This document shows positions 5,038 to 58,909 of a stretch of DNA of 64,000 nt, in pieces. The notes under the pieces were generated by a model, which saw only the letters and a list, made by a program, of their open reading frames with translations, searched no databases and was not told where the DNA came from. A program made the position numbers and the translations under genes. Origin of the DNA: Agroathelia rolfsii (taxonomy: Eukaryota > Basidiomycota > Agaricomycetes > Amylocorticiales > Amylocorticiaceae). Each line of letters starts with the position of its first letter. The first letter of the stretch is position 1. Where the stretch lies: assembly GCA_018343915.1 (NCBI GenBank), contig JABRWF010000004.1:3720001-3784000 (forward strand), given 5' to 3'.

Positions 5038-8000
5038 TCAAGATCGTGGTTGATAACACTGCACCCATGCCGATCCGTGAACGAAATGGGCAAGACTTAA
5101 TCTGATAGGGTTTGGCCCAATGACGGCCGTATTGCTGGGTCTCCAAATACACGAACGATAATCGGGTGGGATCCAAAAAAGAAGCTCGCCTGACGGACCG
5201 AGAACCCAGCCGTCCCTCATCTCAGACGAGTCGGAAAATACCCCTATTTTAAAATCATTTCGTACGTGTCTATCAATTACTCTACTAAGGGGACATGTTG
5301 ACACGAATCATACCTGGGTCACTGAGATTTCTTTGTCTCTCCTTTGACGTGTCATCTAAGTCGACGTTTAACAAAAGCCTGGATGCATATATTTCTTGAG
5401 AGGTACACACCAGGATTCCTGCATTTCGTTACGTCCAAAATGCGAATACTATTATCCCAGGCGCTCGAGCCTATGCGATCACCATCAGGCGAAAATGCAA
5501 CGAACGATATACGGTCACTATGGCCATAGAAAGGGCCAGCCACAAGCTCTCCAGTTATAGCGCTCCATACTCTGATAGTTTGATCATCCGAGCCCGAGAC
5601 GATAAGGTCTCCTTTTGGAGAAAACGCAATAGATCTGACTCGGTCGGTATGGCCGATGATGGGATCGATAACCAGCTGTCCAGTTCTTGCGTCCCATAAT
5701 CGAATACTTCGGTCCCAAGAGCATGAAAGCACGTGATGACCGTCTGGATGGAAGGCAACGGATACAACGTTGTCATCATGTCCAAAGAAGGGCGATCCTT
5801 GAGGTACGCCAGTGACTGAATCCCATATCTGAAGCGTTCTGTCATCTGAACCGGAGACAAGTCGAGTACCATCGGGAGAAAAAGCAATGGATCTGACACG
5901 GCGAGTATGGCCGCGAAATGGGCCTGCTAAGAGCTCTCCCGTCTCTGCACCCCAGATGATTACCGTTTGATCGTCTGAACCGGAGGCAACACGAGCGCCG
6001 TCTGGAGAAAAGCAAACAGAGGTAACCCACTTGTTGTGGCCTTGGCAAGGCCCAGCGACGAGTTTCCCTACATTGGCATCCCAGATCCTCACTGTCTTGT
6101 CGCCTGAGGCTGAGGCTATACGATTGCCGTAGGGAGAGAACGCGACACAACTAACCCAGTGATTATGACCCTGAAAAGGGCTAGTAATCATTCCCCCTGT
6201 CTTTAAATCCCAGACTCGAACTGTACGGTCTGGCGAGCCTGAAGCGACACGATCACTAGAAGGGGAGAATGCAAATGCTCTTACAGCATGGCCGTGACTC
6301 TGGGAAGATTCGGTTACGTGGTTTATCAATTCCACATCCCAAAGTCTGATGCATTGGTCATCTGATCCGGACACCAGACGCTTGCCATTGGAAGAAAATG
6401 CGATAGATCTAACCCAGTGTTTATGGCCGAGCAAAGGAACACCTACTGGTTGACCGGTACGAGCATTCCATATTCGGATGGTTTGGTCTCTTGAGCATGA
6501 AGCAATATAATCGCCTATGGGAGAGAATGCCACCGATATAACTATATCTTCATGTCCCTGAATAGGATGACCTATAATTTCTCCAGTTTCAACATCCCAA
6601 ATACAGATGCTTTTGTCCCATGATCCAGAGACAAGACGAGTGCCGTCAGGAGAGAAGGACACAGACGAGACTTTTGAAGCATGACCCCGAAAAGGACCAG
6701 CTGCAGGTTCACCTGTCGCTGCGTTCCAAACCCAAACTTCTCGCCCTGCTGCCAAAGCAATGCTATCTCCATCCGGAGAAAATGTGATGGATCGGATTTT
6801 CCCCTTGAGAGTATGGAAAGGACCAGCGGTAAGACGGCCTGACTTGGTATCCCAAATTCGTACAGTCATGTCGTGGGAGGTGGATACTACAGAAGTACCA
6901 TCAGGTGAGAATGAAACTGCGGTTATTATGTCATCATGGCCTAAAATCGGAGCAGTCGTTAGTTTTCCTGTCTCTGCACTCCATATCCGGATAGCTAAAT
7001 CATCTGAGCCACAGGCGATGTGTTTTCCATCGGCAGAATATGACAGGGATCTGACATCTGCGACGCGACCCCGATCCTCAAACGAAATAGCGATTGGCTC
7101 TCCTGTATCCGCATCCCACATACTAATGTTTCCATGGACGTCACCCGAGACAATCCGCCTTCCATTCGAAGAGATGGCGACGGCAAAAATAGCATTTGAT
7201 GTCGGAATACTTAGTAGTGCTGGAGTCCAGGTGATGTGTCTTCTGTCTTCATTTTCGATCGCTAGTGATCTTGGAAAATCACTTGAATAATGTCGAAACA
7301 AAGGCGATTGAGTGGGTGTAAAGGATAAAAGTGAAAGATAGATATGAGGAGTGCTCTGACTCATGGCACTGGTGAACGTTCGAGCGAATATTCCTGCATC
7401 CAAGACCAAGGCCTCTATATCGCTAGCGTAGCCCTTATCCTAATGTTAGGGTTAATGCACTATTTACGAGAGAGGTATCAGTAATACACGCCTTCATCCA
7501 AGTACTGAGCATCTGAAGCTGAGCGGATGCTCTATCCACACGCTGCAGTAAGCTAAGTGCTTCCAGCCAGAATAGAAGCTTTGTGCGTAGGAATTCCGTG
7601 GTTTCTGTGTTTAATGATAGGAATGTCGACGTTGAGCACAAGTGGTCCACCCAGTGACGACACGCATATGATAAGTGGGCTGGAATACATTCGGTGATCC
7701 GTTGAGGCAGGTCATCCATGTCCCGGTTACGGAGATGAGAGGTCTTGAGGTTGCAAATGTTAAAGCGAAGGAGCTGGTTCATTTCCCGTAATGAAACGCG
7801 AGCAATATTTTCGTCTTGTGACCCAGCTTCAATATAAAAGCGTCCACTGAGTTGCGCGTCTCTTAGGAAGTCGACGAATGACGCGTGCAGAGGTTGAATG
7901 GGTTCATCTTGGTAAGACACTCCCCGAAGGAGTGATCCAAGTGGATAAACGATGAGTTTCACTTCATCGTCATCCTCTGTCTGTAGTCTCAGGGCAGTCA

Positions 8001-10480
8001 AGGCGGTTAGGGAAAGTGGTTCTCGAAGAGAAAGTATACGACCAAGAATTGTTTTGAAGCGACGACTAGATACATCATCATCATGGAAGTCGAACGAATG
8101 CTCAAGGATTGTTCTATACAGCTTGTAGAGCCCGTCAAGGCTCTGATCTGGTCTGGTAGAAAGACCGAGAAGCTGTTCGAGACGCTCGGTCGGACGAAGA
8201 CCTTTACCGCCGACAACTCCCCGAACGTACTCGCATGCAGTAAAGGCCCATTGGAACAGATGCCCCGAACGAGTGACGATCTGAGGGACCCATTCTTCAT
8301 CTGGCCATTTTTGCTTCAGATCGGATATTCCTGAAAGGCGCGTTCGAACATAGCAGGCGATATCATCATCGGTGGAACTGGGGTTGACGTCATCCAGGTT
8401 TCGAGACAGAACCCAGTCCTTTCCTAGGAAGGTGTCCAGGATGTCCTTCTCGGGACGTGATGTTACGAGGAACCTGAACTGACTTGGAAGTTCGGTAAGA
8501 CGAGTCAGCATCTCTAGCATTTCTTCGCGTTCTCTTTCCGTGCCGCTTTCGTCTAATGCGTCGACGACGATGACGATTGGCCCAACGACATCTATATGCA
8601 TCGACGGGCGTAAAATCATGTTCTCAAATTGTTCTCTCACCGATGAACTTTGCCGTATCCATGCAGAGTCTTTGATGATGTTTAACAGTGAAGCTCTCCA
8701 ATGCGCATCTAAATCTGCTAGGTCCCTAGAGATCGTGCTGAAGAGACAATCAGGGCTGATTCCAGATTGCCTGGAGGCATTGAAAAAGAATGCAACACAA
8801 CGCTTCAAGGCCCTAAACTGCTCCGTGATTGTTTGGGCGATGGCGGTCTTGCCGCAACCTGCCACTCCGGAGAGCCAGAACAAACGAGGTTTGTTGTCGC
8901 CCATAGGGCTATTGACCCATGTTACAATTTCGGATATGATCTCTGCCCGAGTACCTGCTAAGCAACCAGTTGGTACAAATCGATACTTGGCATGAGGTAA
9001 GTCGTTCAGGTATTGAACAGCAGCTATATTCAATTGATACTCATGAACATGGTCACTGGTTACAAGATGTATGCACCAAGACTTACATATATCTTGTGTA
9101 ATCGCTAACACTTCTTCCGAAGTGACCAGGGTCCGAAAGACGGTTATTTCAGTGACGATCATGCTTTGACTCATGAATGACTCCTTCAGCTGCGCAAATG
9201 TATCCATATAAGCTTGTATTTGGCTGTCATGATTCGCAGAAATCGCCTTTGTCATGCGTGAAACTGTGCAAACGAACAAGTCAATTTGCAGATATACGAA
9301 CAATGATGGACTTATTCTTGCCGAGATCGTGAGAAATATAGTCACGAACGAACCAAGAACATTCGTAAGTCTGCTGAAGAATGCGCTTGATAACCTCCTT
9401 ATGAGCTTCTATCTTCTGTAGCGGCTCTGCAGTAAGAATGAGTTTATATACGTCATCCATCGTTTCAAGGAGTTGTGCTATCTTCTTGTCTCTGTGATTT
9501 TGAGAAACGAGTGCCTATTCCATTGTTCATGAGTCAAGTTTTCATAGTAGCATATAACGGATGAAGCTCAACTTGAAGGGCAGGAGACAGTACCATCCAA
9601 ACTAGCTGAGCATATGGATGAATCTAAATATCAAAATGGGATCAGTTTTCACTTCTACTTGAAGAAACTTCTGATGAGCGCACCTCTGAAATCTTGGTTG
9701 CTATCTTTACGAATATTTCAACTCGGTTTATTAGTGGTTCTGATACCTTATATAAGTCGGCGGCAACGTCTCGATCGGAAGCGCCATCAAGCCCTCCGGA
9801 AATCCACTCGGACATCTGACTCGGAGGTGTCCCAGCTCCCTGCGTCCGTTGCACATCTGCAGCGAGGCCTTCCAATGCATTATACGTAACAGAAGACTTT
9901 TCAGAGGACTGAAGCCGTCTAAGGACGAAATTAATGGAACAAATATGACGCTTAGACTTTTTATCTCTTCTGATGATTTGGCATGAGTATTCCATTTCTT
10001 TCCTGATACTGTTAGAAATTATTCTGCTTGATTCCAAAGAGGCACGTACCGTAATCCAAAGCCGAGGTTTTTATCTCAATTAGATCCTCCAGCTCACCCA
10101 CAAGAGCATCATTTCCAAGGGTAAGACGCGCGTTGACCTGGATATTGATTGAAACCATGTCTTGATCAATCTCGCTACATCGCCAAATGAGATCAGCATT
10201 CGAGTCTCATTCGCGCGCGCATAATACCCACAAGGTGAGGGACTCGGCCCACGCAGGAGTCCGAGATCGTCTTGACACCGTTGTACGTCGGCTGAAACCA
10301 TTGACTATCACTTTGGCATAGAAAGAATCGCCAGGCCGTTTGAATACTCCGAATAGTCCGGGGTTGTGAATTTCAGAGCATGATATGCCTGGGCTGTCGA
10401 TTGAGACAGGAAGTTTACGGAGAGTGTTCCTGCCTGGACTTGCCTGAAATTTCAATTACTGTCGTGGATGGTGGTGGCAT
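5038..10480 (-). CDS. C2-NACHT-WD40 STAND (NLR-like) protein
   Basis: A fungal NLR-like signalling protein of roughly 1,600-1,700 residues. In order: a C2-like domain (FYAKVIVNGFSRRTTV, RTPAWAESLTF), a helical linker (IFVKIATKISE, IHPYAQLVWMVL, RDKKIAQLLETMDD), a NACHT ATPase with Walker A GVAGCGKTAIAQ and Walker B VIVVDALDESG, and 14 WD40 repeats, enough for two seven-bladed propellers. Last is a C-terminal module with DGWVLGPSGELLFWIP typical of basidiomycete NACHT-WD40 proteins. The frame break near 7435 is a 67-nt intron (7423-7489). An in-frame TGA near 10207 lies inside a 57-nt intron (10175-10231). Two introns (about 5350-5405 and 5259-5328) link the propeller to the C-terminal module. 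The start at 10480 is the least certain point, since its first intron has a weak donor. Such proteins are thought to sense non-self or pathogen cues and to oligomerise via NACHT; the ligand is unknown. Confidence 0.85.
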
Positions 10481-51674: not shown

Positions 51675-52502
51675 GGCTGTGATGTGATGCCAGGTAGTTG
51701 TAACCGAGAATTTTTCCCCGCTGATATTTCTTGCTCCCTAGTAAGATACTAATAGCACTGCGCCACTACTACCGGTGATACTAGCAGCAAGTGGTGGGAT
51801 TGCGGAAAGAGGATGGGAGAACGGGAGCTCATCGAAGCACCACTCTATTCTTTTTGAAGCGAACTAACATTGGATGAATGCATCATACACCATGTATATT
51901 GTGCACAAATGACTAGAAATGACGTAATTTTCGACTGACATGTGTAGGTCACGGACAGAAGCCAGATGTAAGTTTAGACTCATCGTATATAAATTTGGTA
52001 AAATAGCGTGACTGTGATGTAATAGCCATATTGGTAGTATCACAACGACAGAAACCTAGACTTTTAATTATAAAGCAAAGCTGCAGTGGGCCCGGGCTAG
52101 CACGAACCATTGGGACTACGCCGAGTCATATCACTCATAGATTATGCTACCAGGACTATAAGCTCACGAGTGCAATAATAATGTATCCTGAAAGCCCCTC
52201 TCTTAGCTGTTTTAATTTTACAAAGATGAAAATCGCCTTCGATTTAGACTTGAAAAAGTTTTTGTATGCTACAGCGACTTATAGGAACCAGCCTCAAATC
52301 ACTGTCAACCGCGCTACGTATAGATTCCACCTTTCTGGCAGTTCTATCGCTGTCTATACTCATACACTGGCATAACCCCCCTGCCTCTGCTCACTCTCTC
52401 CCTTGTCTCTCTTCCCGCAGCTGCAGATCGCACACCGTAACCTACCTCTCAGTACTATCTCTTCTATCCTAGCATCTGTCCCTTCTCCATCAACGTACTA
52501 TT
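51675..52502. other. Divergent intergenic region between AKR and coiled-coil gene
   Basis: No gene supported. The last 130 bp before 52503 are strongly pyrimidine-rich on the plus strand, as in fungal core promoters and leaders. Confidence 0.45.
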
Positions 52503-53351: not shown

Positions 53352-53671
53352 CTCGGGTGTCCTTATGGCTCCTCGTCAGGCCAAGTTGAGCCATGCTTGC
53401 TTTTATCTTTATTTTTTCGGGTTTTCTTGCTAGAGATTGGGACTTGAGTATGCCACTTGGATCTATGTCTATCTTATATCGGACTTCATTGTTTCCGCTG
53501 TACCAACCTGTACGGTATCCATATCATAAAACCAAGAGCGACTCCAAAATGGATTCCCACTAGTCAACGCGTCGTGTCAAAGATGTTTGTTGCACTTATA
53601 ATATATCCACGATTACAATAATTTACAAGGGGGCAGATATGGCTTCCGAACATCACTGTTCATCCTGCTTA
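53352..53671. other. Convergent 3' interval, no gene
   Basis: Between the coiled-coil gene (plus) and HHE gene 1 (minus). T-rich 3' flank only. Confidence 0.5.
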
Positions 53672-54687
53672 CTACTGCTTAGCAGCCTCCTTGTCCTCTT
53701 CCGTCGGGAACTCTGCAAACATGTCCTTGAGTTTATCGATAGGCAACACCAAGAATCCGGCCAAAGTCTCATAAGGAGGCTTGTTGGGTAGTTCCGGGTG
53801 GGTTCTGTTACATCAATGAAGCCCAGAGTCAGCATCCATTCCTGCTTTGCCTGAAAAAAACTTGCCAAGCCATCTCACCTTGTTGGGACAAACTTTTTAG
53901 TGCGCTTGAACGATAGAGCAGCGGCCTCGCTGCCTTGCGAGCCGATCTTGGGCTCCAGCTGAGGCAGGTCTTTCTGTTCCTCGCTATCATTATGAGGGCG
54001 TAGATGCTCCATGACTTGGCCAATCTTGGTGTCATAACTTTCCGTGCCGGGTGTGAGTGATTCTAGTTCGTTCAGGAGCTTCTTGACAATCTGCATATAA
54101 AGAAGGATTCATACTCCAGGTTTACAATTGCAAGATGTCATGGGATAAAACATACGATATGGTCTTCACGGTCCTCGTCTGCAAGTCGTTTACCTTCGGC
54201 TCCTGATTATATATGTACCATACATCAACATCGGCCTCATCAAATTAATAAAAAAGAATGTCCATTACCCATGTGCTGTTCCATGAGAGGATATACGACA
54301 ATTTCCTCGCCTACAGCGTGACGAGCAATCTGCCTTCGATTAAGCTTGTCTGCCTTGAATGATAACATGTGATCTTCTCACCTCCCATGTGAGCTGGCGT
54401 GCCCAGCGGCCTTGCGCAGCAGCGTCTCCTGTAGCCTTCTTGTAGTTATCGTAGTATTCATACATCTATCCAGAGACAAAGTACTACGTTGTCAATTATC
54501 CCTTCGGCTTCATACCGAGACGAACCTCCTCGTGATCATCCTTGATTGCAGCGGTAAGTGACTTTGTGGACATGTTTTTTAAGTTGAGGATCGAGATTCG
54601 GGGTGTTGGACTGCAGAGAGTTTGAAGGCGAAGAGTCCTGGAGAGCAAGAGTGTAGGGGTTCGAGTACTAGCTGCAAAAACGGACAT
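53672..54687 (-). CDS. Hemerythrin-like HHE-domain protein, copy 1
   Basis: Six exons, about 225 residues. The N-terminus (MSVFAASTRTPTLLLSRTLR) is rich in Ser, Thr and Arg without acids, as in mitochondrial presequences. An internal Met begins MSTKSLTAAIKDDHEE. The HHE domain supplies the metal ligands: DDHEE, RHAVGEEIVVYPLMEQHMG, DREDH and LRPHNDSEE, i.e. the His/Glu pattern of a di-iron four-helix bundle. Helical exon MYEYYDNYKKATGDAAAQ lies between them. The C-terminal exon is PPYETLAGFLVLPIDKLKDM ending EEDKEAAKQ. Such proteins bind O2 or NO or store iron; the function in fungi is not settled. The second copy at 57.9 kb is very similar. Confidence 0.88.
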
Positions 54688-55049: not shown

Positions 55050-56592
55050 TTATAGCCATCTGAGATCTTCGAGCAGCTTTTTTGCACATGCCTCCTGTGC
55101 GCCATCTTTAGTTCTCCCAGAGAAACTTATGGGTCGATGACCTCGCACTGGGATCGATAATCAGCTCCTCCGAAACAGCGAATAGTTGACACATGAATTT
55201 AAAGACATCTCACCAATTGCCATGGCCGTCCATGTGGGTGCATGTGCCTCACCACTTTGATTCTCAGACCACTGGATATCCAGTTCAACATTACGAATTT
55301 TGGCCAAATCTCTTAGTAATGAGCGGTAATCTGTAAGCAGAAAAGTGAATTCTAAGTCAAATATAGGATAGGTTTGCTCACATCTCCGGCCTTTGTTTAC
55401 CCTATAATCAGCTCATGTTGGAGGAGCTATCGTATACCGCTGTGGAGCTCTCTCAAGTGAACTGGCGCCAGTAGAATATCCGGAAGGCATATTATTGTTG
55501 CCTAATGACATCGAGGTCGATGTGAGTACAAATCTGGATGAATACGCGGCGTGATGATAGCAAAACTTTTCACCTCTGGTAGCCATTGCAGTATATCTTG
55601 TAGGCGTATGAGCAGAGGATATGCTAGGAATCGGATGACCTAGATTTGGAAACCATCAAGATCGACGGTCCGGGTAGTATAACATAGAAGGACCTCACTT
55701 GTCGGGACAGGGATCAAGTTTATACCAGTCGCAGCATTGATAGTTATAGCACGACTCGGGCTGCTAGTAATGGTCGCTGAAGATATCTCAGTAACAGATC
55801 ACAGTGTGTACTGAGATATATGGTGCTATACTAGGGTGAGAACTGGAAAGTCCGTGTGTACGAATTTCTAGTGGAAGCGACTCATGAACCGTGCTTGGTA
55901 TATCTGTAGTAATTACTGCGCCTTTAGTACAAGTTGAAGATAAAGAAAGAAAGAAAGAAACATATTGGGTTCAAAGGGGATGTATCAGATGCTCGAGCCG
56001 CAGCAAAGGACGTATGTAAGTGGGCTTACCAGCAGGAGTACTTTCAGTGCCAGCATCATGGTATCTATCAACGCCTGTAGAGGTGTCACCTAGCTCTCCA
56101 TTATCCCTCGAGGATTTCTAGAAACCAATTACAAAGTAAGTTTGCATGAATATAGTGGTGTGCTGTACACGTACCAGAATATGAGATTGCAGCCTCTTCA
56201 CCTCTTTTCTTGCCCGCGCGATCTCGCGTGATAAGGTAAAGAACCTCTTGATCCACGATGGCTGTTCATGTACCGACTTACAGAACTTGAAATAACGTAA
56301 ACGGAGACTTGAAAGAGAGAGAAATCAATTTAATACTCAAAAGGCCGATCAATAGGTATAGATACTTGTGTAGCGATTCATTGATTTCGTCTTTCAAATG
56401 CGCGTCCGGTAGATAGTTTTGCTCGCACAGAGATTGATATGTAATTTCTACTTCCTGCAAGAGTTCCCGAAATGCTTTTAGTTGTGTTGAGGGTTTGAAG
56501 CGGCGGTATACTGCAATAAACCCGATCAAAGTAATTGAAAATGATATGATCCCGGTGAGATTGCTAGCCGCAGATACACCATTACTATTCAT
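55050..56592 (-). CDS. Membrane-anchored protein with C-terminal dsRNA-binding motif
   Basis: Multi-exon gene starting MNSNGVSAASNLTG. Residues 12-28 (LTGIISFSITLIGFIAV) form an N-terminal membrane segment, followed by a helical stretch (LKAFRELLQEVEITYQSLCE) and another charged helix (IARARKEVKRLQSHI) from the second exon. A disordered Ser/Thr-rich middle runs through several exons near 55.6-56.1 kb; these borders are uncertain. The last two exons (about 55330-55214 and 55142-55050) encode a DRBM fold: DYRSLLRDLAKIRNVELDIQ, SGEAHAPTWTAMAIVRGHRP, then SGRTKDGAQEACAKKLLEDL and the end RWL. The order helix, GxAHxPxW, T/S-K-x-x-A-x-x-x-A-A/C-x-x-L-L is the DRBM signature. The 72-nt intron ends at CCCAG near 55143. 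Function is not known; RNA silencing or transport at a membrane is possible. Confidence 0.65.
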
Positions 56593-57894
56593 TTTATGAG
56601 AATAAAAAGAAATCTAAGTAGCGGAAGAATGAGAGAGCAAGCTGGCTGTTGTCGAGCTCGAGGTATATTTAACTGGGCATCGGTTTTTCCAGTCAAAGAG
56701 ATGGAATCGCTAATAGCGAGCATGACGATGCCTTTAGTTAACCAGAACTTGTGTCAAATTTGACAGCAAATTTTTTTAGCGTCCTCTACAAAATTGAAAT
56801 AGAGATCACCCTGTCAACAGCACAAGTCAGGGTTATATATATATATATATATTGATAGCTCCGGTTTCAGCGCTTCGTCGCTGTAGAATTTCGTATGTCA
56901 CTCCAGGAGAGCCTCGGGCAGCGCTAGAGTATTTGATCATGGCATGATAGATTTTCAGATCAAACTTCACCCGCCCGAGAGTTGTCATGGGGAACTGATT
57001 CCCAGCGGACTTGCCCTAGAAAAACTTGGAGCATCGCGTTTTGACGCGCCTCGGATGACTTTGAGATTTCATTAGCTCAAGCTTATAACTGTCGATCTCA
57101 GAAGCCAGAAGATATGAAATCGAAGCTTATGATGGCCACAGACCAGCAAAAAATTGTGTTGACACAGTCCAGAATAAGTTTAACCTAGAAATTGACTCCG
57201 AGTCAGGGAGATGCGTAGCAAGTTTCCTTGTGCTTGTCTATAGGACAAAACTTGGGTCATTTCCAACCCCGACAAAGCTGACCGAACAACATTGCGCCCA
57301 TACTCTTGTCCCAACTAAAGCTCTCTGCTATTTATCATCGCAGTTTTTCATCTTGCACTACGCTTGCTCCTCAGGCCACACAATTTAGCACCCGGATGGC
57401 TAGCTAAATCCTTTAGACTCGAGAAACCAATGCATCCGAGTCTCTCTCCCTCTGACAACGCCAAAAGACACATCACTTGTGTTCTGATCATAAGCATTTC
57501 GTAAAACAAGATGATTATTTCCTCATAGCTTCGTATCCTTCGAACATCCTTGCCAATCCAATAAATGCCAACTAAAATGTAGGAGCGTTTTTCATCTTCC
57601 TCTATCACGAGCTTTGTCTTTCCCGAAACTGGCGATCCTAGTCATATTCAAGTTGCACCAGATCTGACTGCTGTTTAGTCATTATTATCTAGTTTTGGAA
57701 TCTCCGCTACAAGTACGTCTTTTACCAGGACGATCATTCTCCCTTAAACGGACGTTACGCCAAGTGCTGGACTCAGTGCTTGCCTTTATCGGATGTGATG
57801 CAATTTACTGATTTCATTTAGTATATTTATAATACAGTTATGACCATGGCATTTATAGTACAAGAGTCAACTTTATTTTCTCGAGTTATCGCAA
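56593..57894. other. Intergenic stretch, one orphan frame
   Basis: Contains a TATA dinucleotide run near 56838-56853. A minus-strand frame at 57348-57608 (IEEDEKRSYILVGIYWIGKD...) looks protein-like but has no recognised family, no ATG-supported partner exon and no motif; it may be a gene fragment. Confidence 0.35.
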
Positions 57895-58909
57895 TTATGA
57901 ACGTTTAGCAGCTTCCTTGTCTTCCTCCGTTGGGAACTTCGCGAACATGTCCTTGAGCTTGTCGATGGGCGTTACAAGGAAACCAGCCAAGGTCTCGTAG
58001 GGTGGCTTGTCCGGCGCCGAAGGATGAGACCTGTATATGACATGAATCAATTACCAACATTAGCTTCTATCCTTTGTCCGATGGAATCAGGCCAGATGTT
58101 TCGAGCTTTTACCTTGTTGGGACAAAATGCTTGGTACGCTGGAACGACCGCGCGGCAGACTGGCTACTCTGTACACCAATGCTAGACTCCAGTTGGGGCA
58201 AGTCCTGTTGTTCTTCACTCTCGTTGTGAGGGCGGAGGTTCTCCATAACCTGCTGAATCTTGGCGTCGTAGCTTTCCGTGCCAGGCGTTAGTGATTCCAA
58301 GTCACTCAGAAGTCTCTTAACGGTCTATGGTACCGGACGGTTGCATTTGAACGTGCGCTACGTTTACAAAAGAGAAATGGCTTACCTGGTGATCTTCACG
58401 ATCGTGATCCGCCATCTTCTTGCCCTCAGCTCCTGTATACATCGTGCATCAGCCATTAATGAGACCAGTAACAAAAATAATTCTTACCTAGGTGCTTTTC
58501 CATGAGAGGATATACAACGATTTCCTCGCCTACAGCATGGCGAGCAACCTGGTCCAGTTTTGATTAAGCAAATCGTTCCATTAACAAATGTTTTCGTATC
58601 CCTCACCTCCCATGTAAGCTGGCGTGCCCAGCGGCCTTGTGCAGCGGGATCACCTGTAGCCTTCTTGTAATTCTCATAGTACTCATACATCTACAGTCAT
58701 GTTTAGCTTTTCGTACAGCGACTTCTCAATAGGTTTCACTGGGTCGGAAAACATACCTCTGCATGATCATGGCTGATAGCATCGGTAAGTGCTTTCGTAG
58801 ACATAGCTTTCAAGTATAAAGCTGAGATTCCAGGTGATACGATGGGACGACGAAGGGTCCTAGAGAGGAGAAGAGTTGGGGTTCGAGTAGCTGCAGAAAA
58901 CACTGGCAT
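57895..58909 (-). CDS. Hemerythrin-like HHE-domain protein, copy 2
   Basis: Same exon structure as copy 1 at 53.7-54.7 kb. Starts MPVFSAATRTPTLLLSRTLR (presequence-like), with an internal Met at MSTKALTDAISHDHAE. HHE residues: HDHAE, RHAVGEEIVVYPLMEKHLG, DREDHQ, LRPHNESEE. Later MYEYYENYKKATGDPAAQ, ESLTPGTESYDAKIQQVM and PPYETLAGFLVTPIDKLKDM, ending AAKRS. All metal ligands are kept. The two copies differ by scattered conservative changes rather than frameshifts, so both look functional. They flank the DRBM gene with the same orientation, as if one copy was made by a local duplication that left or later received the intervening gene. Confidence 0.88.

What the first reader, a model, noticed from the sequence alone, without database searches (positions are those of the whole stretch)
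55050..56592. dsRNA-binding motif on a membrane-anchored protein
Seen: an N-terminal hydrophobic anchor and, after a low-complexity middle, a C-terminal segment with DRBM landmarks joined by a clean intron. Known: DRBMs bind dsRNA in Dicer, RNase III and helper proteins. A membrane-tethered fungal DRBM protein is unusual. Inference: membrane-localised RNA capture, perhaps tied to RNA silencing, mycovirus sensing or RNA uptake/export.
Basis: partly seen in the sequence, partly recalled or inferred. Interest (0 to 1): 0.75.

Follow-up and report, generated by a model that had tools for sequence, protein, structure and literature searches.

The report
Fungal membrane-anchored double-stranded-RNA-motif protein
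A fungal gene appears to join a membrane-seeking helical front end to a double-stranded-RNA-binding motif at its tail, and both ends are conserved in a second, diverged copy; the pairing is unusual, but whether it really grips RNA, and what for, is untested.

Summary
Minus-strand gene 56592-55050 is best modelled as 10 exons encoding 324 aa: a hydrophobic helix (aa 10-28) followed by amphipathic helices (to about aa 122), a Ser/Thr/Pro-rich linker, and a C-terminal dsrm domain (aa 255-321; 25.9 bits, cut-off 23). A second copy on a homologous chromosome (C5:690553-692106; protein 84.6% identical) keeps the exons; every indel within the gene is intronic. Both ends are under purifying selection (dN/dS 0.12, 0.13); the linker (0.65) gives no frame signal. 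One gene is the best reading, but the window copy needs a 36-nt intron, holding a TGA, to link the ends.

Membrane association is a marginal prediction. RNA-contact regions are weakened (GPxH to GEAH; KKxAK to KDGAQ), so dsRNA binding is uncertain. The charge pattern puts the DRBM in the cytosol, against uptake from outside. The front end resembles a helical bundle, HeLo/MLKL-like in layout only (no profile match). Piwi and RdRP genes exist in the genome. Three protein searches found no homologue; eight paper searches (three returned nothing) showed no described equivalent.

The parts
56366..56592 (-). exon 1: start codon, hydrophobic helix 1 (aa 10-28) and amphipathic helices 2-3
   Evidence: AlphaFold of this exon alone: helices 5-32, 37-57, 64-75 at low confidence, pLDDT 61.6
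56175..56307 (-). exon 2: rest of the helical N-terminal domain (to about aa 120)
   Evidence: dN/dS of aa 1-120 = 0.12
56030..56117 (-). exon 3: start of the Ser/Thr/Pro-rich linker
55832..55915 (-). exon 4: linker
55699..55776 (-). exon 5: linker
55574..55639 (-). exon 6: linker
55438..55501 (-). exon 7: linker
55402..55437 (-). inferred 36-nt intron 7; in-frame TGA here in the window copy, open frame in the C5 copy (weakest point of the model)
55382..55401 (-). exon 8: short basic exon before the DRBM
55214..55330 (-). exon 9: DRBM first part (helix 1 and the GEAHAPTW loop)
   Evidence: PF00035 match aa 255-321
55148..55213 (-). intron 9 inside the DRBM, 66 nt, phase 1, position shared with other DRBM genes of the genome
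55050..55147 (-). exon 10: DRBM second part (KDGAQ region) and stop codon
   Evidence: PF00035 match; alignment to ADAR2

Best explanation
A real gene, one per haplotype as far as the searches show, encodes a membrane-associated protein whose N-terminal helical domain sits on or in a membrane and whose C-terminal DRBM hangs on a flexible linker into the cytosol. The DRBM most likely acts as a tethered receptor that brings dsRNA, or a DRBM-containing partner protein, to a membrane surface, for example viral or transposon dsRNA made on endomembranes. Shown by comparison: gene structure, two conserved ends, dsrm profile match. Predicted only: membrane association and cytosolic orientation. Inferred: ligand and purpose.
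For: Full-length dsrm match above the Pfam cut-off in both copies. One hydrophobic helix with an uncharged N-terminal side and a basic C-terminal flank. Constraint at both ends but weak between them: dN/dS 0.12, 0.65, 0.13; the two wrong frames give 3.34 and 2.35 (N-terminal part) and 3.99 and 0.74 (DRBM), which supports the frames of the two ends. No gap column in any of the 10 exons against gaps in 4 of 9 introns. DRBM intron shared in position and phase with other DRBM genes. Piwi matches at four places and RdRP matches at six.
Against: KKxAK is KDGAQ and GPxH is GEAH, which predicts weak contacts. Kyte-Doolittle 1.77 is only modestly above the usual 1.6 threshold (recalled); the flat insertion-energy sum is +2.0, and a buried bundle helix would look alike. 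Wrong frames of the linker give 0.57 and 0.48, no worse than the modelled frame (0.65), so the linker frame rests on splice sites and lack of gaps alone. A 36-nt intron is needed in the window copy. No expression data. No homologue in the protein collection, so conservation rests on two copies from one genome.
Confidence: 0.42

Rival explanations
1. dsRNA-gated membrane effector. The N-terminal helices are a HeLo/MLKL-type four-helix bundle whose hydrophobic first helix inserts into membranes when the C-terminal DRBM clusters on dsRNA, killing or isolating virus-infected hyphae.
For: Layout: hydrophobic helix 1 followed by amphipathic helices, flexible linker, C-terminal sensor-like domain. 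A review describes HeLo/HeLo-like membrane-targeting domains related to the MLKL four-helix bundle, and limits on mycovirus spread by incompatibility (PMC12881547, passages); HeLo homologues are reported in Basidiomycota (PMC9815663, passages). A NACHT-type NLR ORF lies in the same window.
Against: No Pfam match to a HeLo-type family at E up to 10, with HMMER's filters dropping most matches above about 0.1. Model of low confidence and of one exon only. DRBM contact residues weakened. DRBM dN/dS is low (0.13), with no sign of an arms race.
Confidence: 0.17
2. DRBM used for protein-protein contact (dimerisation or binding a Dicer/RNase III-type partner) rather than dsRNA; the protein is a membrane docking site for RNA-processing machinery.
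For: KDGAQ and GEAH in both copies while the domain is under purifying selection, dN/dS 0.13; other DRBM genes and RdRP/Piwi matches exist as potential partners.
Against: dsRBDs with an incomplete KKxAK can still bind RNA when a lysine of helix 1 compensates (Maleless, DHX9, RNase III: PMC6486548, passages); basic residues (GRRYYR) precede the domain here.
Confidence: 0.25
3. The window copy is a decaying allele: the 36-nt stretch is coding, CGA became TGA, and only the C5 copy makes the anchor-DRBM fusion.
For: C5 is open through the 36 nt; introns this short are unusual (recalled).
Against: The stretch has GT and AG ends and a branch-like GCTGAT/GCTGAC in both copies, and its identity (0.778) is below that of 9 of 10 exons and of all 8 other introns; the DRBM exons downstream (0.932, 0.929) are as conserved as exons 1 and 2 (0.885, 0.902).
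Confidence: 0.1

Closest known systems
dsRNA-binding motif family (Pfam PF00035, dsrm)
   Same: Full-length profile match above cut-off in both copies; G..H.P.W core; shares an intron position and phase with other DRBM genes of the genome.
   Different: Region 3 KDGAQ instead of KKxAK, region 2 GEAH instead of GPxH, D instead of E in region 1; joined to a hydrophobic helical domain.
Plant DRB proteins (DRB4, PDB 2n3f)
   Same: Best PDB sequence relative, E 0.0051, query 4-64 of 73 aligned.
   Different: Both dsRBDs of DRB4 align (tandem), and the second has TKKLAE where this protein has TKDGAQ; no N-terminal hydrophobic domain in DRB4 (recalled).
HeLo / HeLo-like / MLKL four-helix-bundle domains
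   Same: Layout only: long hydrophobic first helix followed by amphipathic helices, effector-like position at the N-terminus.
   Different: No profile match; fold not shown; a DRBM in place of an amyloid motif, NLR core or kinase-like domain.
SID-1-type dsRNA channels (recalled)
   Same: Membrane protein connected with dsRNA, if the predictions here are right.
   Different: One predicted membrane helix and a DRBM predicted to face the cytosol; no multi-span channel.

Membership tests
dsRNA-binding motif (PF00035) | full-length profile match above curated cut-off | tested here: met
   25.9 bits (window) and 24.4 bits (C5) versus 23; positions 1-66 of 66
dsRNA-binding motif (PF00035), canonical RNA-binding type | contact residues: E in helix 1, GPxH loop, KKxAK at helix 2 (PMC11309768, passages) | tested here: not met
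   D, GEAH, KDGAQ in both copies (alignments); so it is filed as a dsrm-family domain, not as a canonical dsRNA binder
[quoted passage not shown]
   the domain is split by an intron, and spliced proteins were not sent to the structure tool
dsRNA-binding motif (PF00035) | binds dsRNA | not testable with these tools
   needs a binding assay
HeLo / HeLo-like (MLKL 4HB superfamily) | profile match to a HeLo-type family | tested here: not met
   no such family listed at E up to 10 (filters drop most above 0.1); best for the N-terminal part were LapA_dom 0.036 and DUF6178 0.098, below their cut-offs
HeLo / HeLo-like (MLKL 4HB superfamily) | four-helix bundle with hydrophobic N-terminal helix | tested here: inconclusive
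   three helices in a low-confidence model of exon 1 (pLDDT 61.6); exon 2 not modelled
HeLo / HeLo-like (MLKL 4HB superfamily) | membrane-perturbing activity | not testable with these tools
   needs an expression assay
RNAi helper proteins (TRBP/R2D2/DRB type) | two or more DRBMs | tested here: not met
   one dsrm stretch in 324 aa
RNase III / Dicer | ribonuclease III domain | tested here: not met
   no such Pfam match in the protein

The most novel reading that the evidence does not exclude
A fungal one-protein innate sensor: cytosolic dsRNA of a mycovirus clusters the DRBM, and clustering drives the N-terminal helical bundle into the membrane, so that sensing and execution sit in one polypeptide without an NLR or kinase.
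Probability: 0.12. Interest if true: 0.88.

Novelty: new variant of a known kind. Interest (0 to 1): 0.45.

Why it matters
Fungi carry many dsRNA viruses, and RNA silencing is the dsRNA-based defence known to me in them (recalled). A membrane-associated DRBM protein outside the Dicer, RNase III and helicase families would be a candidate for dsRNA handling at membranes, where many RNA viruses replicate. The question is directly testable with one small recombinant domain and one GFP fusion.

Tried and rejected
First splice models (models A-C) contained stops and were dropped. Model M1 (348 aa) read through 55573-55502 as coding; it was replaced by the 324-aa model because the C5 copy carries a 1-base loss and an 11-base gain there. 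A single 107-nt intron 55437-55331 was rejected: from this frame it enters the DRBM in the wrong phase. A 132-nt intron from 55462 was rejected: its donor GT is absent in C5.

Protein searches for homologues: none at E<=1 with the whole 348-aa model, or with the DRBM region or the N-terminal region of the 324-aa model. The collection may hold few fungi, so this does not prove an orphan.

The weak N-terminal match C7:1687439 (E 0.013, 25% identity, 7 stops) was rejected: it overlaps another gene that I read by eye as Nse1-like.

Elevated allelic divergence as a sign of balancing selection was considered and not claimed: the gene differs at 12.1% of 1533 aligned bases against a median of 8.9% in 63 one-kb windows, but ten of the 63 windows are as high or higher, two of these over the gene itself (BLAST pieces of 800 bases or less or of 75% identity or less, and windows with 300 or fewer aligned bases, were left out).

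Literature: searches showed no membrane-anchored fungal DRBM protein. Searches returned no paper at all; the lists of 24, 25 and 57 were cut (20 of 23, 20 of 297, 12 of 40). Open-licence papers only. I saw listings, and passages of PMC9815663, PMC12881547, PMC10197012 (not used further), PMC6486548 and PMC11309768. (dikaryon assemblies) was seen as a listing only and not used to name the organism.

Fold searches were not run, because the only model is of low confidence.

Full report
The finding names a gene at 55050-56592. On the minus strand the first ATG of the open frame is at 56592 and a TAA ends at 55050, so the coordinates are those of a complete gene. My final model has ten exons and nine GT-AG introns (58, 57, 114, 55, 59, 72, 36, 51 and 66 nt) and encodes 324 aa (intron 6 is printed one base short because exon 6 was then set one base long).

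The decisive evidence for the model is a second copy. A search of the window's own genome found the N-terminal and DRBM exons again on contig C5. C4 and C5 are homologous chromosomes: most of the 64-kb window aligns in order with C5:683247-750519, at 87-90% over most of its length, 80% over one short piece, and 83-84% around this gene. Another C4/C5 place (L003/L004) is 91.0% alike, one C1/C2 place (L014/L016) 89.8% and one C6/C7 place (L026/L027) 91.0%, so two diverged haplotypes, or an old hybrid, seem to be present; this is inference. In the C4/C5 alignment of the gene, 0 of 10 exons contain a gap column, while gaps of 2, 8, 7 and 12 columns fall in introns 1, 3, 5 and 6. Both copies give 324 aa with no internal stop, 84.6% identical (counted with the stop).

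Nei-Gojobori counts (synonymous/non-synonymous differences) are 25.5/13.5 for aa 1-120, 17.5/35.5 for the linker and 10/5 for the DRBM, i.e. dN/dS of 0.12, 0.65 and 0.13. In the two wrong frames the N-terminal part gives 3.34 and 2.35 and the DRBM 3.99 and 0.74, but the linker gives 0.57 and 0.48, no worse than its modelled frame (codons that are stops were skipped). So selection supports the two ends as protein domains; it says nothing for the linker frame, which rests on conserved splice sites and the absence of gaps. Together these make one gene the best reading.

The weak point is intron 7 (55437-55402). It is 36 nt long, has GT and AG ends and a branch-like GCTGAT five bases from its end, and contains an in-frame TGA. 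The C5 copy keeps the GT, the AG and GCTGAC but is also open through the stretch. In C5, therefore, the DRBM is in frame with the anchor whether or not the piece is spliced; in the window copy only if it is spliced. I judge splicing more likely than a broken allele, but only cDNA can tell.

The C-terminal domain is a genuine dsrm match: positions 1-66 of 66, 25.9 bits against a cut-off of 23, and 24.4 bits in the C5 copy. The PDB comparison puts plant DRB4, ADAR2 and DRB3 nearest, weakly (E 0.0051, 0.049, 0.83). The intron within it lies at the same place and phase as in the DRBM ORFs L014, L015, L016 and L017; one of the two helicase DRBMs (L001) has none there; the other, and the mL44-like loci L003/L004, were not examined. 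In the window, C5, L014 and L016 more than one join was possible, and I took the one that keeps the domain ungapped. I read L014-L016 as RNase III-like, L003/L004 as mL44-like and L001 as DHX9-like by eye. The dsrm profile search of the genome gave 8 matches, by my reading 7 gene copies; the window gene and its C5 copy are not among them, presumably because the intron splits the domain. These counts are lower bounds.

Does it bind dsRNA? Canonical contact regions are E in helix 1, GPxH between strands 1 and 2, and KKxAK at the start of helix 2 (PMC11309768, passages). Here they read D, GEAH and KDGAQ; the alignment sets RTKDGAQ against ADAR2's PTKKKAK. The Maleless study reports that mutating two lysines of the motif abolished RNA binding by dsRBD1, but also that a lysine of helix 1 can make up for a missing third lysine (PMC6486548, passages). 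I therefore give dsRNA binding about even odds.

The N-terminus has one hydrophobic stretch (aa 10-28, Kyte-Doolittle 1.77; no window starting after residue 40 above 0.77), no charge before it and RRFK after it. If it spans a membrane, the positive-inside rule (recalled) places the DRBM in the cytosol. Against a firm membrane span, a flat sum of apparent insertion energies is +2.0 at best. The 90 residues after it are conserved and amphipathic (18-residue helical moments of about 1 or more over aa 31-60, 64-90 and 82-129). An AlphaFold model of exon 1 alone, without an alignment, gives helices 5-32, 37-57 and 64-75 at pLDDT 61.6. That layout recalls HeLo/MLKL bundles, but no Pfam family of that kind matched, so I do not file it there. 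It also resembles uncharacterised agaricomycete proteins that I recall and could not retrieve.

Function. The genome has Piwi matches at four places and RdRP matches at six, so RNA silencing is probably present and a silencing link is not excluded; nothing here shows it. The explanation that asks least is a cytosol-facing, membrane-associated DRBM receptor for dsRNA or a partner protein. The boldest that is not excluded is a dsRNA-triggered membrane effector.

No homologue was found in three protein searches, and no description of such a protein in eight literature searches, three of which returned no paper. Both collections have gaps for fungi, so novelty is provisional.

Noticed in passing
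window 56365-56308 and C5 copy (L018): Intron 1 is 58 nt in the window copy and 60 nt in C5; in C5 the frame is open through it (167-aa open frame) and, if retained, it would add a second hydrophobic stretch.
   Followed up: partly
window 53640-54573 and 57880-58800, minus strand: Two related hemerythrin-like genes flank the DRBM gene; the first matches PF01814, 50.4 bits (frames); the second was not scanned. Each is about 68% alike in DNA to the C5 counterpart of the other.
   Followed up: partly
window 7435-9408 and 5352-7439, minus strand: A NACHT-type NLR ORF, followed by an ORF with WD40-like repeats read by eye.
   Followed up: no
whole assembly G000: C4/C5, C1/C2 and C6/C7 are homologous at about 90% identity in the places compared, as if two diverged haplotypes were assembled together.
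   Followed up: partly
C5:694884-699449, opposite window 52272-52282: About 4.6 kb present on C5 and absent from the window haplotype next to this locus; not identified.
   Followed up: no
L017 (G000:C3:985212-985496): A small DRBM-only gene (77 aa modelled, one junction residue mistyped), dsrm 34.6 bits, with an intron at the same DRBM position.
   Followed up: partly
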